20,469 bases of DNA from a virus: the IMG/VR virus record IMGVR_UViG_3300010155_004072, positions 1 to 20,469 of that record. One strand, 5' to 3'. Position 1 is the first letter of the stretch; every line of letters begins with the position of its first letter. Under the pieces are notes generated by a model. The model was not told where the DNA came from. It was given only the letters and a program-made list of their open reading frames with translations, and did no database searches. Positions 5,889 through 20,222 of the stretch are shown piece by piece. A program made the position numbers and the translations under genes.

Positions 5889-6314
5889 TTACGGATCTCG
5901 CCGATCGTATTGAACGGAGAGATCCCAATTTACAATCCAATATCCATTAGGATCCAGAACATCGGAGCCCGGCCGGATCTCAATGGTCCGGATCTGGGCG
6001 TGCTCCGTGAGTTGTCGCAACGCGTCCACGCACTCATCGCCGTCGTCAAGTTTCCGGCCCGTCGTGCCCCTGCCTTCGACATAAAGAACCGTTAACTCAA
6101 AGGTTATCTCATACGGATCCGCGGCCCCCCCCAGAGTCGTGACGAGCGACTGGGCCGGGACTTGCGGCCCGACGCGGTCGAGACGGAACGCCCGATCCCG
6201 GGCCGGAGTGTCGAAGTCGTGGGCCCTGTAGACGTCCTCGGTGCTCACCTGGGATCCGGGGGTGATCGCTTCGATCGCGTCAACGATCGCGGTCCGCACC
6301 TCCGCCGCCCTCAT
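5889..6314 (-). CDS. Tail terminator / tail completion candidate
   Basis: A 141-residue protein. The frame runs upstream to 6386, but the ATG at 6314 overlaps the upstream stop by four bases (ATGA) and starts the globular sequence MRAAEVRTAIVDAIEAI, so I choose it. The pattern, an N-terminal amphipathic helix, a middle strand pair (YEITFELTVLYVEG), then a helix (DECVDALRQLTEHA) and a terminal strand pair (IRTIEIRPG and WIVNWDLSVQYDRR), is the alpha/beta layout of gpU-like tail terminators, which cap the tail tube. It sits between the head completion gene and the tail tube gene, the normal slot. No catalytic residues. Function is inferred from fold-like pattern and position. Confidence 0.72.
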   Translation of the reverse strand: MRAAEVRTAIVDAIEAITPGSQVSTEDVYRAHDFDTPARDRAFRLDRVGPQVPAQSLVTTLGGAADPYEITFELTVLYVEGRGTTGRKLDDGDECVDALRQLTEHAQIRTIEIRPGSDVLDPNGYWIVNWDLSVQYDRRDP

Positions 6315-7213
6315 AATACGATCCGGGTGGAAACCGGGGCCACCTCGCCCACGTCGACTGTATTGGAGTCGTCGGAATCGTACCACGTCATCGCATCGAT
6401 CGCCCGGGCCACCTCGACGGCCATCCGGTTGTCGAGGGCGTCAAGTTGATCCAACAAGTCGTCATCGCTGTTAACGAGGACGTGCCGATCATCGAGCAAG
6501 ACCCATTGAAGGGCCACGCGCCCGGCCTCCCGGAGCGAGTCCGGATCGCCGAGCAAGTGGGGGCGGCGTTGGCTCTCAAGGAGACGGGAGCGGACCCGCC
6601 GGTTGGCCCGATCTGCTACTTCCTCCCGCCGCGCTGGGGTCATGGCCGACGCGGATCCGGGATGGAGCCGGGCCACATACTGGTAAACGTCGTCGGGCGT
6701 AACCGGATCCCTAAACAGGGTCCGGACCACATGGAAGATCGACGAATAGGCCCTGACCTTGCCGTCCTGGCGGGTCACGGTCCAAAGGACGCGCCGATTG
6801 GTCCCCCGGTCGGCCGTGGCGGCCGCCGGGAGTGTCCAGGAAACACGGGCACCCCTAAAGGATGTCCCGGCACCCGGCGCGGTAAGGAACCCGGGAGGAT
6901 CTCGAAGCGTGACAACCGATCCGAACATCGCCGCGATCGTGACGATCGCGACCTCGCCGGCCAAGTTTTCCAGGCGGTATGATCGGCCGACGTAAACCCC
7001 GGAAGCCGAATCGAGAGTTAAGCTCTGATGGCTCGACCCCGCCGACGATGCCACGGAGGTAGCCACGCCATCGACGACGACGGCCGAGGATGCAAGCTCA
7101 ACCCCGCCATCGTCGAAAGCCACGGCCGCGGCCGTGGAAAGGTAGCTTTCCTCCGTGTCAGGGTACACCTCGATCTCCGTCGAGGTGCTATTTTCGAGCA
7201 CCTCCCAGGCCAT
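6311..7213 (-). CDS. Head-tail connector / head completion protein with N-terminal beta domain
   Basis: A 300-residue product starting at ATG 7213, which shares one base with the capsid stop (TGATG); a GTG at 7237 is possible but has no ribosome binding site. Residues 1-165 look beta-rich with Ser/Val/Ala repeats. Residues about 168-290 are helical and begin DPVTPDDVYQYVARLHPG, followed by REEVADRANRRVRSRLLES and a final DNRMAVEVARAIDAMTWYD; this resembles the small helical gp6/DUF1320-type connector proteins that follow the capsid gene. The combination of a beta domain fused in front of a connector-like domain is unusual. The domain assignment is by pattern recognition, not a search. Confidence 0.65.
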   Translation of the reverse strand: MAWEVLENSTSTEIEVYPDTEESYLSTAAAVAFDDGGVELASSAVVVDGVATSVASSAGSSHQSLTLDSASGVYVGRSYRLENLAGEVAIVTIAAMFGSVVTLRDPPGFLTAPGAGTSFRGARVSWTLPAAATADRGTNRRVLWTVTRQDGKVRAYSSIFHVVRTLFRDPVTPDDVYQYVARLHPGSASAMTPARREEVADRANRRVRSRLLESQRRPHLLGDPDSLREAGRVALQWVLLDDRHVLVNSDDDLLDQLDALDNRMAVEVARAIDAMTWYDSDDSNTVDVGEVAPVSTRIVL

Positions 7214-8184
7214 CAGGAAACGCCGGCCCCAAAACACCCGGAGACGGGGGCACGCCAGTAGACCTTAGCCTCGAAAAGCACACTGACAACCCAGTTTCGG
7301 TTCGCCACGTCCTGGATAATTTTGATGGACGGAGGCGTCGGGACCCACAGGTTAAGCGGTGTGTTTTCGGTTGAGAAAAGATACCAGTTATTTCCATCCG
7401 TGAGGTACGCCGATTCGATTATCGAAAAAGGGCGGTTAAATTGTGGGTTCGAGTGCGCCCCCGCGGAACCGATCGCGGCCGCGCCGGTAAGGCGATCCGT
7501 TGCCCCTGACGTCCCGGTCGCGTTGTCGGTGAACGTCTGCGCATACATCGGAGATCCGACGAGACGCCGGGCGGTGTCGCCAAGCTCGGGAGGGACGATC
7601 AATGCAAGCGGTCCGCGGTCCAATTCGAGGGGCTCACCAGCGGTGTTCTTCCACTTACGGAGGGCAACCCGGCCGTCATTCAAGCTGGAATGGCTCAGGG
7701 CTGCGCTGGAAAGATTCGACTGGACTGAACTGCCGTCCGTGTGTGCTGCCGAGAAAATCTTGACACTTGCGCCGGCATCCCCCGATGGTACTTCCGTTGT
7801 CGTGATGCCGAGGGGCAACGCGTCAAAAACGAGCTTCTCGAACGTTCTCTTAGCGCCGATCATCAACTTCTCGGCCCCGTTGGCCACGACGTTGCTGTCC
7901 CGCGCCTCCTCGATTTCCGTAAAGGTGAGCTTGCCAGAGTAGGCGGTCGGAGTGACCGAAACGGCCGCGGCCGATCCGTGGGTGTGTGCGGTGATTGGAT
8001 CCGCGTGCGCCCCAATCTGGCCGACAGGATGATCCGCCCACACTTGCTTTGCCGCTGCGTTCTCAGACGAAAGATTTGTGAACGCTTCGAACTGGGGCAA
8101 CCAATTAAGGACATCCTCTTGGTAGGCCTCGATCAGGGTCTCGTATTTGTTGGTAGTGCCGTATGGTGTAATAGTCGTCGCCAC
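7213..8184 (-). CDS. Major capsid protein (Mu gpT-like)
   Basis: A 323-residue protein starting at GTG 8184, with AAAGGGGG five bases upstream. It has the hallmarks of the Mu gpT-type major head subunit: an N-terminal helix leading to FTNLSSENAAAK, a central conserved-looking SSLNDGRVALRKWKN followed by PLALIVPPELGDTARRL, and a late strand segment NWYLFSTENTPLN. It shells the capsid with the scaffold encoded two genes upstream. No N-terminal protease-processed delta domain is obvious, consistent with a separate scaffold gene. Neighbours (portal, scaffold before; connector after) support the call. The family assignment is from recalled motif pattern. Confidence 0.88.
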   Translation of the reverse strand: MATTITPYGTTNKYETLIEAYQEDVLNWLPQFEAFTNLSSENAAAKQVWADHPVGQIGAHADPITAHTHGSAAAVSVTPTAYSGKLTFTEIEEARDSNVVANGAEKLMIGAKRTFEKLVFDALPLGITTTEVPSGDAGASVKIFSAAHTDGSSVQSNLSSAALSHSSLNDGRVALRKWKNTAGEPLELDRGPLALIVPPELGDTARRLVGSPMYAQTFTDNATGTSGATDRLTGAAAIGSAGAHSNPQFNRPFSIIESAYLTDGNNWYLFSTENTPLNLWVPTPPSIKIIQDVANRNWVVSVLFEAKVYWRAPVSGCFGAGVS

Positions 8185-9280: not shown

Positions 9281-10018
9281 TCACAACCCCAGAGATCGGC
9301 GTATTTTCTGGATCAGGCGGCGATCCCCTCTCATGGGGATCTTCGGCTTGTCTTTGGTTTTTATTGCGCGGCCGCCGACGGCCAAAAGTATGCACGTTCC
9401 GACCGCGTTCGCCTCCGACGAGGACGGTTGTAATATGGAGATCGGCGAGTGGCCGCCAGACGCCGTGTGCTGGGGCCCATAGGTGACGACGGGCTGGCCG
9501 TTCCTCCATTTTGTCGTGGGGGCGTTTTTCGACATACCCGACACCGCGAGGGCCTTGTGTTGGTTGCGAACGGTCACCGCCTTTTCGCGTGTTCCCGCGA
9601 CTTTTCCGGCGCTCAACTTTAGGCCGGATCGGGTCGCCCGGAACTTGGCGGCGCGCGCCTTCGTTTCCACCACCTGAGTTTTAAGGACGACTTGGCCACT
9701 TCTGTTTTTCCGGTATGCCTTCGACTTCCGGGCGAAATAGGCGCGCGCGCCGACCCCGCCATGTCTGGAAACCGGGGCCACGGTCAGAGATCGCCACATC
9801 TCCCCACTTAGGACGCCGGGCCCGAGCTTGCCCCCATCCGATGCCTTCTGACGATCGCGGACACGCTCCCGAATGTGAAAAGCGATCGTCGCGCAGATCT
9901 TGACGGCCGGCCTCCACGTCCGGATCAAGCGTGGCGTGAACTTGGCCCCCCAGAAAATCCCGATCGAAAGGCCCTTACCGCCGGGTGGGCGGAATACCTC
10001 GCGGCGTGCTTTAGCCAT
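9281..10018 (-). CDS. Basic neck / virion morphogenesis candidate
   Basis: A 245-residue, very basic protein (Lys/Arg-rich throughout). The frame extends to 10114, but the ATG at 10018 gives MAKARREVFRPP, sits eight bases into the portal 3' end (ATGGCTAA overlap) and has a GGGGG binding site five bases upstream. Residues about 50-110 contain a helix RLIRTWRPAVKICATIAFHIRERVRD followed by a GPGVLSGEMWRSLTV segment; a helix, then a Ser-Gly-x-x-x-x-Ser-Leu turn leading into strands, resembles the HK97 gp10 / Mu gpG-type morphogenesis proteins. The middle is Lys/Ala-rich. Position directly after portal fits a neck or minor head role. Confidence in the gene is high and in the function low. Confidence 0.7.
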   Translation of the reverse strand: MAKARREVFRPPGGKGLSIGIFWGAKFTPRLIRTWRPAVKICATIAFHIRERVRDRQKASDGGKLGPGVLSGEMWRSLTVAPVSRHGGVGARAYFARKSKAYRKNRSGQVVLKTQVVETKARAAKFRATRSGLKLSAGKVAGTREKAVTVRNQHKALAVSGMSKNAPTTKWRNGQPVVTYGPQHTASGGHSPISILQPSSSEANAVGTCILLAVGGRAIKTKDKPKIPMRGDRRLIQKIRRSLGL

Positions 10019-11330
10019 CGGATCCCCCGCCCTGCACTTGCCGGTACTCCTCCAGGTTCTCCTTGACGATCTGCCGGGCCTCCGCGAGGGGGACGCCCAT
10101 TCGGGAGGCCACAAGACGCGAAGGACTCGTGATGCCCAGCGAGGCCCCTAGCTGGTCGGCCTGTGACTGATGGAGGATGTCGGCTGGCAACTCGATCTTG
10201 TTGTACCCCATTTGCACGCGGGGGGCCTTGATGGTCCCGGTGTTAGCTCCGAAGTTCCACGAGAGCACAGACGCCGCGACGGCCGCCATGTCGTTTTCGC
10301 AGTCGATCAGGGCGTTTGTAAGCTCCTCTTGATGGGCGTCACGATCGATCATCTCGATCCGTTTTGCGACGGCCGTGACGGCCCGGGTGTAGTCCTGGGG
10401 CCTGAGCCCATAGGTGACCCGGAGCATGTCCCAGAATTTGGTAGTCGACGCGATATAGTCGGCGAGGTTGGAGGTAGGGCTCACGACATTGAACGACGAC
10501 TCGCTATCCAGGCCGATCACGGTGTCCGCTCCGAACTGCAATTCCTGGGCGCGCTCCGGTGTGAGGCCGGAGATCACACGCTGTCCGTGAGAGGTGTTCA
10601 AAGCGACATATTGCCAGTCTGCCATAGCGACAGATATGGATATCTGAGCGTCGTGTAACTCCAAGGGGAGGGCTGACCATACGCTTCCTGGGTGCTCGAC
10701 CCCCCCGAGCCGAGCAACGAACACCGGGAGCATGTCAAAGGGCATCCGGCCGTCGTCGGTGTAGACTCCGCTCACCTTCTGGCCGACGTATTCGGCGCGG
10801 TCAGGAGTGATCCTCAAGGTCCCGTACCTTACCCGATCGTGCGTAGCTTCGAGGGCCACCTTAAAGCGGATCTCCCGGGCGGCCTGGATGTTGGCCGAGT
10901 CCGTCGGATCCGGATCGATTTCGCACATATATGGGGGGAATAAATCCAAATGCCAACGATTCCGGCCACTTACGGGACGAAATAGGCCTATTACTGTGCC
11001 CTGTGTGACCAGCAATTCCGTGAGGCGTTTCATCACGGTATTAATTCTGAGCCCGTCATAGACCCGGGCGATCACGGAGGTCGAGGCGTCCCCGTCGATA
11101 AATGTTCGAGTTGGGGGCCGCCTGTAATGTGGCGTCAATTCCTTGCTAAACGACCATACGACGGGAAGATCCCGAGCTAGCCGCCGGCCGTGGCTTCGGG
11201 GGAATAGCTTGGGGAGGATCTCTTTTTGGATCGATCTGAAATCCCGGTTTAAGAACTCGTGGAGGCGCTTTGATGTCTTGTGCCAATTCGGATCGCGCTG
11301 GGTCATCCCCGGGTAATGATCAAGGTTCAT
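10011..11330 (-). CDS. Portal protein
   Basis: A 439-residue protein starting at ATG 11330, seven bases after the terminase stop, with AGGGA upstream. Gene order (TerL then portal) and size fit a portal, the dodecameric ring through which DNA is packaged and to which the neck binds. Recognisable features: an N-terminal stem with KELTPHYRRPPTRTFIDGD, a middle region PLELHDAQISISVAMADW that resembles the portal core helix before the crown, and a long helical C-terminal part (VAKRIEMIDRDAHQEELTNALIDCE) ending in a Gln-rich EEYRQVQGGGSDG tail. Portal sequences diverge strongly, so the call depends on neighbours and helical layout; I would expect a structure search to confirm it. Confidence 0.85.
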   Translation of the reverse strand: MNLDHYPGMTQRDPNWHKTSKRLHEFLNRDFRSIQKEILPKLFPRSHGRRLARDLPVVWSFSKELTPHYRRPPTRTFIDGDASTSVIARVYDGLRINTVMKRLTELLVTQGTVIGLFRPVSGRNRWHLDLFPPYMCEIDPDPTDSANIQAAREIRFKVALEATHDRVRYGTLRITPDRAEYVGQKVSGVYTDDGRMPFDMLPVFVARLGGVEHPGSVWSALPLELHDAQISISVAMADWQYVALNTSHGQRVISGLTPERAQELQFGADTVIGLDSESSFNVVSPTSNLADYIASTTKFWDMLRVTYGLRPQDYTRAVTAVAKRIEMIDRDAHQEELTNALIDCENDMAAVAASVLSWNFGANTGTIKAPRVQMGYNKIELPADILHQSQADQLGASLGITSPSRLVASRMGVPLAEARQIVKENLEEYRQVQGGGSDG

Positions 11331-11337
11331 ATTTTCC

Positions 11338-12672
11338 CTACATGGTAAACGCTCCGATCATGCCGTGGCGGCCCTTCGCCATATACGCGCAAGAGTCGAT
11401 CGCGTGGTCGAAAACGTTATCCTTAAGCACCTCGTCTACAAGCTCATTGTTGACCGTGCGGCGGCGCAACATCTCGAACGATCGTACAATGCCGCGATCG
11501 CCATCGCAATGCAATAATCCGGTAGAGAAGGCGAGCTTAGGCGGGTTCAATTCGTCGGCCTGCGCGTCCCCCATTGGGTCGAGGAGGGCCCGGATCGTTT
11601 CCATCCCGCCCCATTGCGATTGTTGCGCCCTCGATTGCATCGTGATGATCTGTGCCGATCTAAACTCGTTCATCAGCCACCGGTTTTGACGGGGGTCGGC
11701 GCGGTCGGTGTAGCACGCGAGGGGCTCGCGGCCGAGCTTCTTGGCCATATCGCGAATCATTCCCCTCTGGCGATCCATCGGGGTATCGTCGGGGTGCTCT
11801 TCGAGGAAACACACGTCGATCTCTGTACCGTCGCGCTCGATCCTTTGCCACGCGAGGAACGACGCGTGCGAGTATCCCCAATCGCACGACAGGAACCACG
11901 GATCGCCGTACTGGTGACGGTGATCGATCAGGTGGCCATCGGGCCACCTCTTTTTGACGAACTCGGGGAAAACCACGTCGGGGCTTCGGAGCAAAGAACA
12001 CTCCACCTCGGAGCGCCAACTCCGTCGGGATAAGTTCGCCTTCCAGTCCGCGACCACTTCGGCGTCGAGGTACGGGTTGTCCATCGACGTCGATTTTACA
12101 AGGTGGTGAATTTTCGATCCGCCCTGGAGCGCCTCAACGAAGAGGCGCGGAACGCCACGGTACCCCTTAGGCGTGGTCGTCGCCCATTTCCTCGAACTCC
12201 CGATCCGGACACGCCCGGAAATCAGCGCCCAGATCGCCGCCGGATCCGGGACCTGCTCGATCTCGTCCACATAGGCACCTGCAAGCTCGATCCCACGGAG
12301 CCGATCGACGTCCTTGGCAAAGCTCAGAAACCAAAGCTCAGCGCCGCCGCGTAGCTCCAGGATGAAATCCGAGCGGTGAAACCGGCGGACTAAGCTCCAA
12401 CCCTTGGCGCGCTCCCAATGGTCGAGCATCGCTAGGATCCGCGCAACGTGGATCCGCTTTGATTGCCGGAAGGTCGGCGCAAACACCCCGATCGGTAGGC
12501 CGCGATTCTCGGGCCTCAACGCCTCCGTGACGCACGCAAGGAGGCCCACGGCGGTCTTCCCGGAACCGATGCCCCCGAGATAGAGCCGATTGGGCTGGGG
12601 GGCTAGCATAAACCGCATCTGGGCCGCGTGTAGAGGCCCGAGGCCCAAAGCGCCGACGGTGGTGCTTGTCAA
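11338..12672 (-). CDS. terL: Terminase large subunit
   Basis: The DNA-packaging motor, ATPase plus nuclease, 444 residues. It begins at a TTG (12672) that overlaps the small-subunit stop (TTGA) behind GAGGG six bases upstream. Walker A is GGIGSGKT at about 33-40, Walker B ends in AYVDEIE with the Asp-Glu pair at 136-137, and a coupling motif TTTPKG lies at about 166-170. The RNase H-like nuclease shows Asp264 (SCDWGYSHA), Asp323 (CYTDRADP) and Asp426 in FDHAIDSCAYM, a typical third acidic residue. Length is normal for a compact large terminase. TerL should bind TerS on the DNA end and dock on the portal. I see no adjacent cos or pac site that can be named. Confidence 0.96.
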   Translation of the reverse strand: MTSTTVGALGLGPLHAAQMRFMLAPQPNRLYLGGIGSGKTAVGLLACVTEALRPENRGLPIGVFAPTFRQSKRIHVARILAMLDHWERAKGWSLVRRFHRSDFILELRGGAELWFLSFAKDVDRLRGIELAGAYVDEIEQVPDPAAIWALISGRVRIGSSRKWATTTPKGYRGVPRLFVEALQGGSKIHHLVKSTSMDNPYLDAEVVADWKANLSRRSWRSEVECSLLRSPDVVFPEFVKKRWPDGHLIDHRHQYGDPWFLSCDWGYSHASFLAWQRIERDGTEIDVCFLEEHPDDTPMDRQRGMIRDMAKKLGREPLACYTDRADPRQNRWLMNEFRSAQIITMQSRAQQSQWGGMETIRALLDPMGDAQADELNPPKLAFSTGLLHCDGDRGIVRSFEMLRRRTVNNELVDEVLKDNVFDHAIDSCAYMAKGRHGMIGAFTM

Positions 12673-13292: not shown

Positions 13293-13834
13293 CCCCCGGG
13301 GACTCGCCCCGTCATCGCGTAAATTTCGCCGCGGGGGTCCATCACCGGGCGGCGGACCCGGATGATCATCCGTGGCGATCCGTGCTTTTCGGCGTACACC
13401 TTAAGCACCCGGAGGTCAACCACCTGCTTGTCATCCCTCCAGAACCCTGACCCCTTCGCGCCCAGGCTGTCCAAGACCGCCTTGGACACGTTGTCCCCGT
13501 CCGGTTTCTGTGGACACCACATCACGAGGCCATCGGGATCGGATTTGCGGCGGAGCCGTTTGGGCCGGCCCATGATGCAAACCAGATCGACACGGACGGG
13601 CCCCTCAAGCACCTCCGCCGGCATATGCTCCCGAGCCATCAGGGCAAGCCGAGCTTGCCACTGTGCCGTCGCGCTCGGAAGGTAAGTCCCCTGGGCCGTG
13701 ACTCGGGCGCTTTGCTTGCCCTTGGGGGCGAGCGGAATCTCAAAAACGACGTCAAGGGGACGAGGGCCCGGCGAGGGGTCGGACCCCTCGCCGGTGGTGA
13801 TGGCCGTCCTCATCTCTTTTGTGCGATCTCCCAT
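13289..13834 (-). CDS. RusA-type Holliday junction resolvase
   Basis: A 181-residue protein starting at ATG 13834 directly after the preceding stop (TAA then ATG). It carries the RusA signature: KPDGDNVSKAVLDSL followed by FWRDDKQVVDLRVLKVYAEK, which supplies the catalytic and metal-binding acidic residues and the positively charged DNA-contacting Lys. An N-terminal 45-residue extension precedes the core and is Pro/Gly-rich, making it longer than the roughly 120-residue E. coli RusA. The usual role is to cut four-way junctions during recombination or to resolve branched DNA before packaging; its location just ahead of the terminase genes fits the second. Confidence 0.93.
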   Translation of the reverse strand: MGDRTKEMRTAITTGEGSDPSPGPRPLDVVFEIPLAPKGKQSARVTAQGTYLPSATAQWQARLALMAREHMPAEVLEGPVRVDLVCIMGRPKRLRRKSDPDGLVMWCPQKPDGDNVSKAVLDSLGAKGSGFWRDDKQVVDLRVLKVYAEKHGSPRMIIRVRRPVMDPRGEIYAMTGRVPGG

Positions 13835-14113
13835 TTAGGCCTCATGCGCCGGCATTTGCAGCAACGCCAATTCGTCGATCCGCTGGCAAAGATCCTCGAC
13901 GACCTTTTCCTGTGATCCTCCCGACACGAGACGACAAACGGAGATAATCCCGGAGACGTACACGATCCGGAGGATCCCGATCTCGATCGCGGCCTCCAGG
14001 CCGGTCACAACCGGCCGATCGCACCGCGCCGTCTTTGTGATCATAAATCGGTTAAGCGCCTCTTGGATCCGCTCGTCCTCGAAGAGGTCGATCGCTTGTT
14101 GAATGTCCGTCAT
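13835..14113 (-). CDS. Small unknown protein after the helicase gene
   Basis: A 92-residue protein, ATG 14113 overlapping the helicase stop by four bases (ATGA), and abutting the resolvase start. The N-terminus is helical and acidic (DIQQAIDLFEDERIQEALNRF), then comes a hydrophobic segment (LEAAIEIGILRIVYVSGIISVC) with a Cys, and a C-terminal helix (QEKVVEDLCQRIDELALLQM). The hydrophobic middle is not long or uniform enough for a confident membrane span. I do not recognise the family. Its place between helicase and resolvase suggests a replication accessory role such as a loader or helicase-binding factor, which is inference. Confidence 0.72.
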   Translation of the reverse strand: MTDIQQAIDLFEDERIQEALNRFMITKTARCDRPVVTGLEAAIEIGILRIVYVSGIISVCRLVSGGSQEKVVEDLCQRIDELALLQMPAHEA

Positions 14114-15402
14114 CCTTGGGCCCCCGGTGGGTAGAAGCTCTGGGCTGGCCAGTTCGCCTCTGTTTTCCAGGCCGCCTCCGGGCCGGTCCGGTTTTTGACT
14201 GCCCGAAGCTCGCAGATCTGCCGGTTCATGGGATCCGGATACCAGATATTAACGACCCAGTCGGCCTCTTGGCTCACGATGTCACTCTCTGCGATGTCGT
14301 GGAGGCCCGGCGGTCTGCTGTTGTTCGCCGATTCCCGGTTTAGCTGGCAAGCGACGAGCCACGGCACATCAAACTCCTTGGCGTGATCCCTCATCCGCTT
14401 GGCGAAGTCTCCGAGGGCGTGGCGCATCACACGCGGATCGGGGACCCGGATCCGGTGAATATGATCGACAACGAACACGGAGACGCCATCCCGGGCCGCT
14501 CGGGTCGCCGAGGCGATGATCGCCTTGGGGTCAAGCTCATCGGAGATCTCGATCCGCCGGCCTAGACCCGCGGCGATATTGTCGGCGGCGCGTTGGGCTC
14601 GCTCCCAGTTGGGCACGCCTTGTATTTCCGATCGGAATATCTCCCGGGCGATCGCCTTCGCCGCGAGGTCCCGGGGGTGTAGCTCCAGAGAGAAAAACCG
14701 GATCCGGGTGTCGGGTTGTAGGTGTGCGATCTGAAGCGCCACATAGGTACAGAGCGTGGTTTTCCCCGCTGACGTGCGGCCGCCGATCAACCCTAGCTGC
14801 CCCCCGGCGATCTGACCACCCCGGGCCTTGTTGATGTCCCGATCGAAAATCGGGAGGCCGGTCCGGAATCGACGCCGGCGGCCCTCCTCGAAATCGCGGA
14901 GCGCTCTGGCGTGCTCCTGGGCGGCCTCTGATAGCGTGACAACCCGGCCGCCGCGTGGCCCTGCGGAGAGGTCAGAGAGCCGGCCGATCGCCTCTTCGGC
15001 CGCCTCGACGTCCCTCGACGCCGCGGCGGTCGTCACCTTTCGAGACTCGTACACCATCCGGCGGAGCCGGGCTTGTGTGGCGAGCGTCTGGGCGTCGTGC
15101 CGGATCGTGGTAGTGGCGGCGACCTGTGAGATCCACCCAATCAACTCGACCTGTACAGCCTCGAAGGGCGATCGCTCGTCGGAGATCTCCCGGGCCACCC
15201 ATTCGAGTAGGGCGGCGTCGGGGACGCCCTCCGACACCCCGCGCCGGATCGCGTCGAGGGCGTCACGGGATCTGGGGTTGACCATGTCATCGGGATCGAG
15301 AACGTCGGCGACGACATCGAGGCCACGCGGGTCGAGGAGAACGGAACCGAGGATCGCGTGCTCTAGTTGCACGTCTGAGGTGCGGATCGCTGTGATCGTC
15401 AT
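14110..15402 (-). CDS. Replicative DNA helicase, DnaB-type
   Basis: A 430-residue helicase that starts at ATG 15402 (ATGA overlap with the initiator stop) behind GGAGGGG. The N-terminal domain has the DnaB pattern QLEHAILGSVLLDP at about 12-25. Walker A is GGRTSAGKTT at about 207-216, followed by SLELHPRD in place of the usual glutamate motif (SLEM), Walker B is VFVVDHIHRI near 309-318, and CQLNRES near 350 corresponds to the DNA-binding loop with QLNR. The ordinary Asp-Tyr of Walker B is Asp-His here. The protein should unwind phage DNA at the fork; a phage-encoded helicase beside an initiator is the lambda/P22-like arrangement, though here there is no obvious separate loader. Confidence 0.95.
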   Translation of the reverse strand: MTITAIRTSDVQLEHAILGSVLLDPRGLDVVADVLDPDDMVNPRSRDALDAIRRGVSEGVPDAALLEWVAREISDERSPFEAVQVELIGWISQVAATTTIRHDAQTLATQARLRRMVYESRKVTTAAASRDVEAAEEAIGRLSDLSAGPRGGRVVTLSEAAQEHARALRDFEEGRRRRFRTGLPIFDRDINKARGGQIAGGQLGLIGGRTSAGKTTLCTYVALQIAHLQPDTRIRFFSLELHPRDLAAKAIAREIFRSEIQGVPNWERAQRAADNIAAGLGRRIEISDELDPKAIIASATRAARDGVSVFVVDHIHRIRVPDPRVMRHALGDFAKRMRDHAKEFDVPWLVACQLNRESANNSRPPGLHDIAESDIVSQEADWVVNIWYPDPMNRQICELRAVKNRTGPEAAWKTEANWPAQSFYPPGAQG

Positions 15403-16244
15403 GGTTGCCCCTCCATTGCCGCCCGGAGGGCCTCATCGGCGCGCTTGGGGTCCTGTGGGGCGTATGTGGGCACGCCCGAGGATGGGGCTGGGCTATCAGG
15501 CTCCAGGAAGTTTCCGATCCTCACGGTCCACGGCCGATCGCCGCGGGTCGGGAATAGCTGCGCGATGTCCCGCCGGTGAGCCTGACCCCGGACCCAATAC
15601 CACGGATCCGAGAGGGCGTGCTCCAGGTAGCCCTTGACGACCTCGATCGGGTGGGCTTTGAGGACGTCGGTGATCCTCTTTTTTTCCACGTCCTGCGCTT
15701 GTCGCTTTTTCTTCGCCTTTTCCCTCCAGAACTCAACCGCAAGTCCGAGGTCTTCCGAGGGCTCTCTTTCTTTCTTTCTATCTATCTTTCTAAGGTAGAC
15801 CGGTCCCGGAGTGGTAGAAGAGTGGTCTTCTACCAGGGGTAGACTAGGCTGACGGGCGGGGGGATTGTCACACCACACGGCGGCCGCGTCGATGTGGTGA
15901 TCCTGGCGGCCCGGTAGCTTGGGGCGTCCGCGTCGATCCCGGTTCTTGTTGGGCTGATCTTCGTCAAAGCCTGCGATCTCGATCCACGCCTGATCGCCGC
16001 CTGGATCCGCGTACCACTCGACGAGCCCGGCGGAGTGCAAGCTCGCGAGGGATTCAGCGAATTCTGACGGGGTCCGGAGCGTCGGGCCGAATCTGTGGAG
16101 CAGAGCCCCGGGATGGCCGCACAACCGGCCATAAGAGTCGGAGACCGTGAGGATGTGGAAGTATAGAAGCTTGGAATGGTCTGGGAGAAATAGGAATCTA
16201 GGATCACATATTATATCTTGGCGGATGGCCCTCCACGTCGTCAT
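15399..16244 (-). CDS. Replication initiator (winged-helix, O-like)
   Basis: A 281-residue protein. The frame extends to 16313, but ATG 16244 (MTTWRAIRQD) has an AAGGGGGG site and overlaps the stop of a leader ORF, so it is the likely start. Residues about 1-95 form a winged-helix-like domain (SKLLYFHILTVSDSYGRL, then a wing ending WIEIAGFDEDQ), resembling the DNA-binding domain of phage replication initiators. A charged linker with Pro, Arg and Lys (about 95-165) spans the suspected origin, and the C-terminal part (FWREKAKKKRQAQDVEKKR, then SDPWYWVRGQAHRR) has the layout of the helicase-recruiting domain of DnaD/O-type proteins. It is coupled to the DnaB-type helicase by a four-base overlap. 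Function is inferred from domain pattern plus position. Confidence 0.82.
   Translation of the reverse strand: MTTWRAIRQDIICDPRFLFLPDHSKLLYFHILTVSDSYGRLCGHPGALLHRFGPTLRTPSEFAESLASLHSAGLVEWYADPGGDQAWIEIAGFDEDQPNKNRDRRGRPKLPGRQDHHIDAAAVWCDNPPARQPSLPLVEDHSSTTPGPVYLRKIDRKKEREPSEDLGLAVEFWREKAKKKRQAQDVEKKRITDVLKAHPIEVVKGYLEHALSDPWYWVRGQAHRRDIAQLFPTRGDRPWTVRIGNFLEPDSPAPSSGVPTYAPQDPKRADEALRAAMEGQP
15763..15843. other. Putative replication origin inside the initiator gene
   Basis: Between 15794 and 15843 the hexamer GGTAGA (or its complement TCTACC) occurs four times: 15794-15799, 15813-15818, 15829-15834 (reverse) and 15838-15843. A perfect 10-base inverted repeat (15812-15821 and 15826-15835, 4-base loop) and the palindrome GACCGGTC (15798-15805) are in the same stretch. 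Beside it lies a strand-asymmetric tract of tttc and tatc repeats (15763-15792), purine-only or nearly so on the minus strand. Lambda ori has this plan: four iterons with dyads next to an AT-rich purine-asymmetric segment, inside gene O. The functional call is inference. Confidence 0.5.
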
Positions 16245-16279
16245 GATTGGCCCCCCTTGATGCGTGTTTTTGGTTGCAT
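16241..16279 (-). CDS. 12-codon leader peptide ORF upstream of the initiator
   Basis: ATG 16279 starts an ORF encoding MQPKTRIKGGQS and ends in TGA that overlaps the initiator ATG by four bases (ATGA). Upstream is AAGGAGGTG (16295-16287), one of the strongest ribosome binding sites in the window, with a seven-base spacing. The initiator's own AAGGGGGG site lies inside the leader ORF. Ribosomes translating the leader would deliver or hold translation for the initiator, a common control device for replication proteins. The peptide is basic and too short to be an enzyme; I infer a regulatory role. Confidence 0.55.
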   Translation of the reverse strand: MQPKTRIKGGQS

Positions 16280-16303
16280 TGTGTCGCACCTCCTTGTGTC
16301 GGA

Positions 16304-16332
16304 AACATGGCACGCGATCCGGGCCGCGTCAA
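16304..16332 (-). promoter_or_regulatory. Predicted leftward promoter
   Basis: TTGACG (16332-16327, 5 of 6 to consensus) is followed after exactly 17 bases by CATGTT (16309-16304, 3 of 6). Transcription would begin near 16297, only a base or two before the AAGGAGGTG site of the leader peptide. The -35 is strong and the -10 weak, which often means an activator or repressor-controlled promoter. It would drive replication and, by read-through, morphogenesis genes. Confidence 0.5.
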
Positions 16333-16369
16333 ATATCGAGTTAAATCAAGCAATTTGACACGCGATCCG
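16311..16369. repeat. Paired 11-bp repeat in divergent promoters (operator candidate)
   Basis: CACGCGATCCG occurs at 16311-16321 and again, same orientation, at 16359-16369. The first copy lies in the -35/-10 spacer of the leftward promoter and the second in that of the rightward promoter. Between them, GTCAAAT (16328-16334) and ATTTGAC (16353-16359) form an inverted repeat made of the two -35 regions. A dual regulator binding the 11-mers would cover both promoters. Confidence 0.5.
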
Positions 16370-16383
16370 CCGGGCCCCATACT
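16355..16383 (+). promoter_or_regulatory. Predicted rightward promoter
   Basis: TTGACA (16355-16360, perfect -35) is followed after 17 bases by CATACT (16378-16383, 4 of 6 to TATAAT). The start site would be near 16390, about ten bases before ATG 16401 of the helix-turn-helix gene, so the message has almost no leader. This is the best promoter match I found in the window. Confidence 0.6.
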
Positions 16384-16400
16384 CGCCGCGGGTGGTTAAT

Positions 16401-16796: not shown

Positions 16797-17769
16797 GGCC
16801 CGGAAGGGTCGGATCACAGGATCCAAGATCTCCGACATCATGGGCCACGGCTACCACGACGTGCACGATCGATACCTGCTCGAACGCGGCGAGCTAGTCG
16901 ACGACCCGGCCCCGTCGCTGGCTATGAAACGAGGTACTCTGATGGAACCCGAGATCCTCAAGACCGCGGCCGCGGATCCGGCCCGGCCCGGAGCGTTTGA
17001 GGTGCTCACCACCCCGTCTTTTGTGCTCCATCCAACCGAGGATTGGATCGGGTGTTCTCCCGATTTCCTGGCCACCTCGTCGAGTCCTCCATTTTGCGAC
17101 AAGTGGGGGAGTTGGCCCGTGAAGATTTACGGTGAAATCAAAAGCCGCGATAGCTCCCAAAGGGCCCATTACAAGGGCGGAGGGTGCAAGCCGGCCGATC
17201 GCCTCCAGGTTCTCCTCGGGTGCATTTGTACCGGCGCAGATCTCGGGCTGCTCGTCGTCGAGATGCAATCAAACGTCCAATACAGGATCATCGAGCGAGA
17301 TCCAGACCTCGAAGCGGAGATGATCGCGGCGGCGTCCAAGTTTCGCCGAGCGGTGGGCAATGGGAACCGCGGCGATCTCCTTGAGCTTGCAGAGTCCGGA
17401 GAGGTCCGCCGGGCCATCGTCTCGGAGCGCTACGCCGAATCAAGGCCCGACACGATCGACACCGAAGACCCGGACATTGAGAGCCTCGTGGCCTACGTCT
17501 CCGAACTCCGAGAGAATCGATCCGAAATAATGGAGATCATCGCCCAGACCGAAGCCCTGATCGGCGATTTTATGGGCGAAGCCGAGCACCTATCGACCCC
17601 GGACTATAGCGCCCACTTCCCGGCAAGCCGACCAGGGCGGCGCAGCTTTAGCGTCAACGCCCTTAAGGCCGCGTTGCCCCACATCGATCTAGAACCATAC
17701 TACAAAACCAGCAAGCCCAAGGGCCGGGGGACCCTTCGGATCAGGAGAAAAGATGATGACGAAATTTAA
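16711..17769 (+). CDS. YqaJ / lambda-type recombination exonuclease
   Basis: A 352-residue protein of the PD-(D/E)XK phage exonuclease family that degrades one strand of linear DNA to make single-stranded ends for annealing. The start is ATG 16711, with AGGAGG seven bases upstream; the frame runs open upstream but only as a shadow of the helix-turn-helix gene. Motifs in order: WLKARKGRITGSKISDIMG at about 27-45 (the R-x-x-T-x-S start), GTLMEPEIL with Glu80, GCSPDF with Asp117, GEIKSR with Glu142-x-Lys144, and RLQVLLGCICTGAD with Gln166. All catalytic positions are present. The C-terminal 100 residues form a charged helical extension. The end overlaps the next gene by 17 bases, so the two are probably expressed together. 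Confidence 0.92.
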   Translation: MTTTKTPASIGWQFRIELAAGARRPTWLKARKGRITGSKISDIMGHGYHDVHDRYLLERGELVDDPAPSLAMKRGTLMEPEILKTAAADPARPGAFEVLTTPSFVLHPTEDWIGCSPDFLATSSSPPFCDKWGSWPVKIYGEIKSRDSSQRAHYKGGGCKPADRLQVLLGCICTGADLGLLVVEMQSNVQYRIIERDPDLEAEMIAAASKFRRAVGNGNRGDLLELAESGEVRRAIVSERYAESRPDTIDTEDPDIESLVAYVSELRENRSEIMEIIAQTEALIGDFMGEAEHLSTPDYSAHFPASRPGRRSFSVNALKAALPHIDLEPYYKTSKPKGRGTLRIRRKDDDEI

Positions 17770-18574
17770 GCCCCCTGTACTAGCCGCCCGTTCCCCCCTG
17801 CTCGACCCCCGACGCCTCCGGATCTGTGTCTTCGGGGCGTCTGGATCTGGAAAGACCACTTTCGGATCCCAGTTCCCTCGACACATCTTTTTCGACCTCG
17901 ACGCCGGGGCGGAAGCGGTATCGATTCGCCCGTTTCCGGCCGAGGTTCCCGCCGATTTTGCGGCCCATTGTAGAGCCCAGAAGCCACCTCTTACGCCCTC
18001 GCGGTGGACGTGGCTCCGGTACGGTATACAGGCCGCCATCGACTCCGGGGAGGGCGAGGCGCTGATCATCGACACCATTGATGCCGCGTGCGATCTGGCA
18101 TTCGATCACGTCTGCTCCGAATTCGGGATCACACACCCCGACGATCGCCCGAGCCAGAAAGCGCAAATGTGGGGCCGGATCAATCGCGAGATCGAGGGGC
18201 TCCTCAAGTCCACCCGGGCCCACTCCGGAGCCGTGGTTTTCATCTCTCACGAGACCCAGAGGGACTATGATCCCGATGGCAACGCGATCGGCATGTTCGA
18301 CAAGAACACCCGGGACGTGAGGACCCGATATATCCCCTCACTGAGGGAGCGCCCCCGTGTAGCCCTGGAGAAGGTGTGCTCCATCATCGGGCGGGCTTAT
18401 ATCGACGACCAGGGGGCCCGCTGGCTGTATATCGGGACTAACCCGAAGTTCTCGACGAAGCTACGGATCCCGCCATCGGTCGCCGACCTCTTCGACGACC
18501 GGATCCCGTTGGGCTATGACGCCCTCCTGGAGCCTTTCCGGGCCGCCTACAAGAAGTTGAACGCCGAGCCGTGA
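17753..18574 (+). CDS. Sak4-like RecA-fold ATPase (recombinase / annealing protein)
   Basis: A 273-residue ATPase with start codons at 17753 and 17756 behind AGGAG; I give the first, the second has slightly better spacing. Walker A is GASGSGKTT at about 28-36, Walker B ALIIDTID at about 103-110, and a third nucleotide-sensing segment VVFISHETQRD follows at about 161-171. This core pattern, a compact RecA-like fold without DnaB or RecA accessory domains, is that of the AAA_24/Sak4 group of phage single-strand annealing proteins. It follows an exonuclease gene, the classical partner arrangement of recombination systems. Sak4 is usually paired with an SSB, and I see none nearby. The family name is from motif pattern and context. 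Confidence 0.85.
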   Translation: MMTKFKPPVLAARSPLLDPRRLRICVFGASGSGKTTFGSQFPRHIFFDLDAGAEAVSIRPFPAEVPADFAAHCRAQKPPLTPSRWTWLRYGIQAAIDSGEGEALIIDTIDAACDLAFDHVCSEFGITHPDDRPSQKAQMWGRINREIEGLLKSTRAHSGAVVFISHETQRDYDPDGNAIGMFDKNTRDVRTRYIPSLRERPRVALEKVCSIIGRAYIDDQGARWLYIGTNPKFSTKLRIPPSVADLFDDRIPLGYDALLEPFRAAYKKLNAEP

Positions 18575-18859: not shown

Positions 18860-19027
18860 TTGAATGAGACGAAAAACGAGGAACGCGCTGTGCATTGGAT
18901 CAAGGGCCTCGGGGCCCTGTGCAAGGCTCCGGGGACTGTCACGATCACGTGGAGCCCGGAGCATGTGACGTGCCCAGACTGCAAGGAGAGGATGAGTGAT
19001 GACCAGGAGGAAGAACGCCCCCCATGA
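18860..19027 (+). CDS. Small Cys/His protein (possible zinc binding)
   Basis: A 55-residue product. I choose TTG 18860 because AAGGGG (18849-18854) lies five bases upstream and just after the preceding gene ends; an ATG at 18815 in the same frame would overlap the preceding gene and lacks a binding site. The core is VHWIKGLGALCKAPGTVTIT followed by PEHVTCPDCKERM: one His, one Cys, then a CPDC pair, the layout of very small phage zinc-ribbon-like proteins. The C-terminus is acidic (DDQEEERPP). It overlaps the methyltransferase gene by 29 bases. Function unknown; nucleic-acid or protein binding is possible. Confidence 0.7.
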   Translation: MNETKNEERAVHWIKGLGALCKAPGTVTITWSPEHVTCPDCKERMSDDQEEERPP

Positions 19028-20222
19028 ACCCGCCCCGCGGACCTGGGTCTACACGGGGGACTGCGCTGATGTGATGGCCGCCGAGCTTGAACCGGAGAGC
19101 ATAGACGCGATCGTGTCCGATCCTCCCTATGGGATCGGGTTCATGGGAAAGGATTTTGACAATCTCGGCGACGGCGGCGACCAGCAAGCATTCCACCGCC
19201 GTTGGGCCGAGGCCGCGATCCGGGTCCTCAAGCCGGGTGGGTACGTTCTGGCGATGGGCTCGCCGCGCACATATCATCATCTCGCCTATGGGTTGGAGCT
19301 TGCCGGATTTGAAATCAGAGACTCGATTCACTGGATCTACGGATCCGGGTTTCCCAAGTCGCTCGACTGCGGGGGAGGTCTCGGGACCGCCCTCAAGCCG
19401 GCCCATGAACCGATCCTCGTCGCCCGTAAACCCTTCCCCGGGACCGTGGCCCAGAATCTCGAAGAGCATGGCACTGGGGCCATCAATGTCGAGGCGTGCC
19501 GGGTTGGAGTGGAGCCGGTGACGATCAACAGGTACGACGCCGGCGGCGATCCGTTCCTGGGACACCGGGAGGATAGCCGGGGGATGAACGGGGAGACCTA
19601 CGAGCCCCACGAATCGATCGGGCGATGGCCTCCCAATGTGATCCTAGCTCACGTCGAGGGCTGCGGGATCCGATGTGTGGAGGGGTGCCCGGTGGCGGAG
19701 ATGGATCGGCAGAGTGGATATACCGTGTCCAGATCTGGCGGGATTGCAGGGTGGCAAACCGGCGGTTATGTCGGCGGAGTCCCGGGCCCGGATGTCGAGC
19801 GGATATGCCCGGAAGACTCCGGAGGAGCCTCCCGCTACTTTCCGATCTTCAAATACAAAGCAAAGCCCGGCCGTGAGGAGAGGGAGGCGGGGTGCTGGGA
19901 TCTGGAGGGGAGGAACTGGAGCGACGGGCGGAAAGGGATCGCCAATCACCCGAAGCTGAGAGACGCCCGATCTCGCGGAAATCACCATCCGACCGTTAAG
20001 CCCCTGGATCTCATGCGCTGGTTGTTGGCCCTAGTTGTCCCCGACGGTGGGATCGTTCTCGATCCGTTTCTCGGGAGTGGCTCCACCCTCTGCGCGGCGG
20101 TCCTGGAGCAAGTCGACGCCATCGGAATCGAGATGGATCCGGCCTATGTGGAGATCGCCCTGGCTCGGATCCGGTACTGGGCGAGCACCGATGACGCCCG
20201 GCAAATGGGGCTGGGAATCTGA
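18999..20222 (+). CDS. DNA methyltransferase (N6-adenine or N4-cytosine, beta class)
   Basis: A 407-residue enzyme. I use ATG 18999 with GGAGAGG seven bases upstream; a GTG at 18996 precedes it. Motif IV is DPPY at about 41-44 (SDPPYGIGFMGKDF), the AdoMet motif I is DPFLGSGSTL at about 355-364, and a motif X-like HHPTVKPLDLMRW lies near 329. The order IV, target-recognition region, then I defines the beta class. The middle (about 80-320) carries a Cys cluster (GCGIRCVEGCPVAEMDRQSG), a signature common in phage methyltransferases of this type. It transfers a methyl group from AdoMet to DNA; the target sequence cannot be read from the gene. There is no cognate nuclease next door, so it is an orphan, most likely protective. 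Confidence 0.93.
   Translation: MTRRKNAPHEPAPRTWVYTGDCADVMAAELEPESIDAIVSDPPYGIGFMGKDFDNLGDGGDQQAFHRRWAEAAIRVLKPGGYVLAMGSPRTYHHLAYGLELAGFEIRDSIHWIYGSGFPKSLDCGGGLGTALKPAHEPILVARKPFPGTVAQNLEEHGTGAINVEACRVGVEPVTINRYDAGGDPFLGHREDSRGMNGETYEPHESIGRWPPNVILAHVEGCGIRCVEGCPVAEMDRQSGYTVSRSGGIAGWQTGGYVGGVPGPDVERICPEDSGGASRYFPIFKYKAKPGREEREAGCWDLEGRNWSDGRKGIANHPKLRDARSRGNHHPTVKPLDLMRWLLALVVPDGGIVLDPFLGSGSTLCAAVLEQVDAIGIEMDPAYVEIALARIRYWASTDDARQMGLGI

What the first reader, a model, noticed from the sequence alone, without database searches (positions are those of the whole stretch)
15663..15843. Lambda-like origin inside the replication initiator gene
Four GGTAGA hexamers, one reversed, with internal dyads in about 50 bases, sit beside a strongly strand-asymmetric tract (15763-15792, extended by pyrimidine runs on the plus strand at about 15676-15735) in the middle of the gene encoding a winged-helix initiator. 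It maps to the poorly constrained linker (residues about 136-160), as lambda ori does within O. Elsewhere I noticed only one GGTAGA copy (14130), though I did not scan exhaustively.
Basis: partly seen in the sequence, partly recalled or inferred. Interest (0 to 1): 0.7.

Follow-up and report, generated by a model that had tools for sequence, protein, structure and literature searches.

The report
Phage replication origin inside initiator gene
An uncultivated phage very probably carries its DNA replication start site inside the gene for the protein that recognises it, as lambda and P22 do; this is a known arrangement in a phage with no close relatives in the collections searched.

Summary
Four GGTAGA hexamers (one reversed) lie in 50 bp, with a perfect 10-bp-arm inverted repeat made from two of them. 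They sit beside an AT-rich, strand-asymmetric tract in the middle of a 281-aa gene. The protein has a winged-helix N domain and a disordered linker, and it matches phage replisome organizers by fold. Its gene overlaps a DnaB-type helicase gene by ATGA, as P22 genes 18 and 12 do. Synonymous recoding never gave four copies (0/3000) and cannot explain the AT excess; all three arginines in the tract use the rare codon AGA.

Lambda O, P22 18 and three Gram-positive initiators gave the same mid-gene repeat signal. So did 27 of 44 distant genes lying just upstream of DnaB-like helicases, against 0 of 92 control genes. In lambda and P22 the AT-rich purine tract lies just downstream on the coding strand, as here. 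The best reading is an intragenic theta origin of P22/lambda type: a new member of a known kind, with no experimental proof.

No close relatives were found, so conservation of these hexamers could not be tested. A wider conserved hairpin in such linkers (loop T[AG]A[AC]), which the window matches only in part, is the most novel lead.

The parts
15399..16244 (-). Replication initiator gene (281 aa, ATG at 16244): winged-helix N domain, disordered linker, helical C part
   Evidence: AlphaFold2 (residues 5-93 confident, 95-169 pLDDT <50); BFVD Foldseek 'Replisome organizer' E 2e-6; tblastn to Paenibacillus phage 'DnaD domain protein' E 1e-3
15966..16232 (-). Winged-helix DNA-binding domain, residues 5-93
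   Evidence: secondary structure; PDB Foldseek hits are winged helices (CodY, Fur, BlaI; prob 0.9+, E 0.04-0.1)
15738..15962 (-). Disordered linker, residues 95-169, which holds the DNA elements
   Evidence: pLDDT below 50
15794..15799 (+). GGTAGA site A (putative initiator half-site)
15813..15818 (+). GGTAGA site B, left arm of the inverted repeat
15829..15834 (-). GGTAGA site C, right arm of the inverted repeat
15838..15843 (+). GGTAGA site D; with C forms TCTACC-AGG-GGTAGA
15812..15835 (.). Perfect inverted repeat, 10-bp arms, 4-nt loop (TGGTAGAAGA GTGG TCTTCTACCA)
   Evidence: ssDNA fold -10 kcal/mol, z -2.2 to -2.3
15762..15791 (-). AT-rich, purine-rich tract on the coding strand (pyrimidines on +), putative unwinding element
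   Evidence: codon table (three AGA Arg codons, each 5.5% usage)
14110..15402 (-). DnaB-type helicase gene, overlaps the initiator by ATGA (15399-15402)
   Evidence: PF03796 E 6e-25, PF00772; PHROG 19 E 2e-48; BLASTP to P22 gp12 E 1e-9
16245..16391 (.). Intergenic region between divergent early operons: sigma70-like promoter and two 14-nt repeats; probable operator/promoter region and rival origin candidate

Best explanation
The stretch 15762-15843 is the phage's theta-replication origin, embedded in the initiator gene. The winged-helix domain of the initiator binds the GGTAGA sites, probably as dimers on the B-C inverted repeat and neighbouring half-sites. It bends or wraps this DNA and opens the adjacent AT-rich, purine/pyrimidine-asymmetric tract. 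Its linker and C-terminal part then recruit the phage-coded DnaB helicase made from the overlapping downstream gene, without a loader, as in the P22 18/12 module. Shown: the sequence elements, their DNA-level (beyond-codon) nature, the identity of both genes, and the same anatomy in known intragenic origins and in distant phages. Inferred: binding, melting, helicase loading and the actual start of replication.
For: Sites and tract confirmed. Synonymous-recoding test: 0/3000 reach four hexamers, AT 4 sd high. The repeat metric in this gene is z 4.4 with 0/200 synonymous shuffles, peak starting at 0.47 of the gene; lambda O z 4.0 (0.37), P22 18 z 3.8 (0.49), phi31 Orf269 z 3.1, Mock2 z 4.5, Javan246 z 2.6. 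In lambda O and P22 18 the AT maximum, also purine-rich, lies just downstream of the repeats on the coding strand, as here. Annotated lambda iterons and the P22 rep_origin lie in the same part of O and 18. Of 44 mechanically chosen genes directly upstream of DnaB-like helicases, 27 exceed synonymous shuffles (p<=0.02), mostly with the cluster at 0.37-0.54 of the gene; 0 of 92 control genes do. A purine rise of +0.08 (t 3.5) sits at the 3' end of the clusters. Fold and family evidence for both genes. Literature: lambda ori = four 18-bp iterons + 38-bp AT-rich stretch inside O (PMC3349717); its AT-rich region is strand-asymmetric (PMC5043065); SPP1 oriL with repeats and AT-rich DUE lies within gene 38 (PMC6316719).
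Against: No close relative was found in the searched collections, so conservation of the DNA cannot be shown. The hexamers are short and in mixed orientation. A four-in-50 cluster of some hexamer arises in 5-11% of random windows. The initiator has no significant sequence similarity to O or gp18. TP901-1 rep, used as a control, gave no signal with this metric (z 0.9). The cumulative GC-skew minimum (15059) is nearby but confounded by gene orientation.
Confidence: 0.8

Rival explanations
1. The repeats and hairpin act in regulation (operator for autoregulation, or an mRNA structure affecting initiator/helicase expression), and the origin is elsewhere.
For: The inverted repeat is a good dimer-binding or RNA hairpin element.
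Against: It lies mid-gene, about 400 nt inside the reading frame; no promoter-like or terminator-like site there, no Rfam family. The repeats plus AT/purine tract match known origins.
Confidence: 0.08
2. The origin is the intergenic region 16245-16391 between the divergent early operons.
For: AT-rich, two 14-nt direct repeats and an imperfect inverted repeat.
Against: A sigma70-like promoter overlaps it, so operator use explains it; repeats are few; position does not match the helicase-adjacent initiators surveyed.
Confidence: 0.07
3. Chance: a low-complexity Lys/Arg/Glu linker and a random hexamer cluster.
For: Linker residues RKIDRKKERE favour purines; some hexamer cluster appears in 5-11% of random windows.
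Against: Synonymous recoding 0/3000; rare AGA codons three of three in the tract; coincidence of repeats, tract and location; 27/44 analogous genes show the same.
Confidence: 0.05

Closest known systems
Phage P22 gene 18 / gene 12 module with ori inside gene 18
   Same: Initiator gene overlapping a DnaB-type helicase gene by 4 bp; annotated rep_origin in the middle of gene 18; repeats followed by an AT/purine-rich tract on the coding strand
   Different: Initiator sequence unrelated; repeat GGTAGA instead of GGTAAA-type; the P22 hairpin follows the tract, here it precedes it
Phage lambda ori in gene O
   Same: Four repeat elements next to a strand-asymmetric AT-rich tract in the initiator linker (PMC3349717, PMC5043065)
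   Different: Lambda has four regular 18-bp dyad iterons and uses a loader (P) with host DnaB; here hexamer half-sites in mixed orientation and a phage DnaB
Replisome organizers of Gram-positive phages (SPP1 gene 38/oriL; Lactococcus phi31 Orf269; Paenibacillus Mock2; Streptococcus Javan246)
   Same: N-terminal homology with Mock2 (29% over 113 aa), fold match, repeats in the same linker; SPP1 oriL lies within gene 38 (PMC6316719)
   Different: Mock2 and Javan246 have a DnaC/DnaI-type loader next to the initiator, not a DnaB; repeat sequences unrelated

Membership tests
Intragenic iteron origin of lambdoid/P22 type | Repeated initiator-binding sites inside the initiator gene, in the linker | tested here: met
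   Four GGTAGA at residues 134-150 in the disordered linker; exceeds synonymous shuffles. The repeats are met; binding itself is not testable here
Intragenic iteron origin of lambdoid/P22 type | Adjacent AT-rich, strand-asymmetric unwinding tract downstream on the coding strand | tested here: met
   83% purine, 73% AT window at gene nt 450-480; lambda O 77/77% and P22 73/77% at nt 435-465
Lambda ori proper | Four regular dyad iterons about 18 bp long | tested here: not met
   Hexamers in mixed orientation, spaced 19, 16 and 9 bp; one perfect dyad only
P22-type replication module | Initiator gene immediately followed by a phage DnaB-type helicase | tested here: met
   ATGA overlap 15399-15402; P22 gp12 BLASTP E 1e-9
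Lambda O / P22 gp18 protein family | Sequence homology to O or gp18 | tested here: not met
   BLASTP E >1; no significant Pfam/PHROG match
Phage replisome organizer (DnaD-like initiator) fold group | Winged-helix N domain with matching fold/sequence | tested here: met
   weak in sequence, whole-chain TM low because linker and C part are poorly modelled
Functional replication origin | Initiator binds and replication starts here | not testable with these tools
   Needs binding and replication assays
T[AG]A[AC]-loop linker hairpin class (described here) | Stem-loop with T[AG]A[AC] loop 3' of repeats and tract, in fixed codon frame | tested here: not met
   No such loop in the window gene; its hairpin shares frame and GAAG/CTTC arms with L093 but has loop CCAC and lies 5' of the tract

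The most novel reading that the evidence does not exclude
Phage intragenic origins share a third, little-noticed element: a stem-loop in the initiator linker with a conserved T[AG]A[AC] loop, covarying stems and one fixed codon frame, lying between the repeat/tract region and the exchangeable C-terminal domain. It could be a single-strand structure for priming or helicase loading, an RNA hairpin, or a domain-exchange junction. The window's GGTAGAAGA-N4-TCTTCTACC hairpin would be a diverged member in which the arms also serve as initiator sites; L093 (same arms, same frame, loop TAAA, next to a DnaB gene) would be the bridge.
Probability: 0.25. Interest if true: 0.6.

Novelty: new member of a known kind. 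Interest (0 to 1): 0.4.

Why it matters
It gives a testable origin for a phage with no close kin in the searched collections. It also suggests that the lambda/P22 layout (repeats plus asymmetric AT tract in the linker of the initiator gene beside the helicase gene) is widespread enough to predict origins in uncultivated phages from sequence alone. The linker hairpin, if real as a class, would open a question about how these origins load helicase or prime.

Tried and rejected
Close relatives by initiator, helicase, terminase, capsid and portal in viral contigs and by helicase in genome contigs: none. Initiator against Pfam, PHROGs and PDB sequences: no significant family. Extended motif TGGTAGAAGA with 2 mismatches: nothing beyond chance outside the hairpin. 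Transcription terminator: none found. Rfam and tRNA: none. GC skew: minimum at 15059, not usable because gene strand switches at 16.3 kb. SPP1 record not in the collection. The first control comparison used upstream genes I had picked after seeing scores; the mechanical set was run to avoid that bias and is the one to quote, although the 92 control genes come.

Full report
What is there. The four GGTAGA copies are at 15794+, 15813+, 15829- and 15838+; two more lie far away at 11521 and 14130. It is the only hexamer with four copies in 50 bp. That alone is modest: 5% (order-1) to 11% (order-2) of Markov-resampled windows contain some such cluster. Sites B and C form a perfect inverted repeat, 15812-15835. 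The + strand from 15762 to 15791 is nearly all pyrimidine.

DNA-level constraint. The stretch codes for PSLPLVEDHSSTTPGPVYLRKIDRKKEREP. Recoding it with the phage's own codon usage gave four GGTAGA in 0 of 3000 trials, and AT 35.0 +/- 2.6 against the observed 46. The three arginines in the tract all use AGA, a 5.5% codon in this phage. The protein therefore does not explain the DNA.

The gene. It runs 15399-16244 on the minus strand. AlphaFold2 gives a confident winged helix at residues 5-93, a disordered linker at 95-169 and a poorly modelled helical C part (mean pLDDT 52.6, six-row alignment). BFVD fold matches are led by replisome organizers and include a lambda O N-terminal protein; PDB matches are winged-helix DNA binders with E above 0.001. 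The N domain is 29% identical to a Paenibacillus phage DnaD-type initiator. The next gene, overlapping by ATGA, is a DnaB-type helicase, 23% identical to P22 gp12 over most of its length (E 1e-9). Nothing resembling a loader was identified nearby.

Comparison with known origins. I scored each gene for the best 100-nt stretch covered by repeated 7-mers (direct or inverted) and compared it with codon-permuted versions of the same gene. Window z 4.4, lambda O 4.0, P22 18 3.8, Mock2 4.5, phi31 3.1, Javan246 2.6, TP901-1 0.9. Among 17 other window genes one other (6311-7237) scored above 3. Annotated lambda iterons and the P22 rep_origin sit in the same part of their genes. The AT maximum, also purine-rich, starts at nt 435 of O and 18 and at nt 450 here. 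Papers support these parts: lambda ori in O (PMC3349717), its strand asymmetry (PMC5043065), SPP1 oriL in gene 38 (PMC6316719).

Distant phages. No close kin was found, so I took 80 distant IMG/VR contigs with a DnaB-like helicase (identity 20-30%). In 64 of them an upstream gene could be scored: mean z 2.05 against 0.44 for the helicase genes (p 2e-8). In a mechanical set of 44 directly adjacent genes, 27 reach p<=0.02, mostly with the cluster centred at 0.37-0.54 of the gene, and a purine rise occurs at its 3' end. None of 92 other genes in these contigs reach p<=0.02 (the upstream set of that call was hand-picked, the controls were mechanical).

A hairpin class. The exact hairpin GGTAGAAGA-N4-TCTTCTACC occurs in three other IMG/VR contigs; one copy (L093) is in the linker of an unrelated-looking initiator that overlaps a DnaB gene. 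This led to a wider pattern: stem-loops with loop T[AG]A[AC], mostly between 325 and 465 nt before the helicase, with different stems in different phages and P22 18 included, 15 on the coding strand against 2 on the other. I did not verify each ORF as an initiator; only 12 of 120 had a detected DnaB within 900 nt downstream, and several are plainly other proteins. The window hairpin shares the frame and the GAAG/CTTC arms but not the loop or the order, so it is not filed as a member. One identical-stem hit could be chance given how many such hairpins exist.

Verdict. Intragenic origin of P22/lambda type, predicted, not proven: 0.8. New member of a known kind.

Noticed in passing
L017, L025, L028, L041, L042, L062, L065, L073, L093, L090 (P22 gene 18) and many of L095-L213: Stem-loop with T[AG]A[AC] loop, covarying stems and fixed codon frame in phage initiator linkers, after repeats and tract and before the C-terminal domain. 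No literature on it found in the library.
   Followed up: partly
L095-L213 hairpin contexts: Directly before that hairpin there are often tandem hexanucleotide repeats such as (GAACCA)n, (CCGACC)n or (GATACA)n, giving proteins with DTDTDT, EPEPEP or PDPDP linkers.
   Followed up: partly
window 13768-13794: Perfect palindrome with 13-bp arms (CCGGCGAGGGGTC G GACCCCTCGCCGG) at the start of the RusA gene.
   Followed up: no
window 7120-7204: Cluster of three perfect inverted repeats with 8-9-bp arms at the start of the gene after the capsid gene; it also gives a repeat score z 3.4.
   Followed up: no
window 16245-16391: Divergent promoter region with two 14-nt repeats (TGRCACGCGATCCG) and a sigma70-like promoter; probable operator region.
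   Followed up: partly
window 10011-11330: The portal gene holds the most atypical codon usage of the window.
   Followed up: no
window 16840-18574: Early plus-strand operon with a RecE-like exonuclease and a Sak4-like annealing protein, then a DNA methyltransferase at 18996-20222.
   Followed up: no
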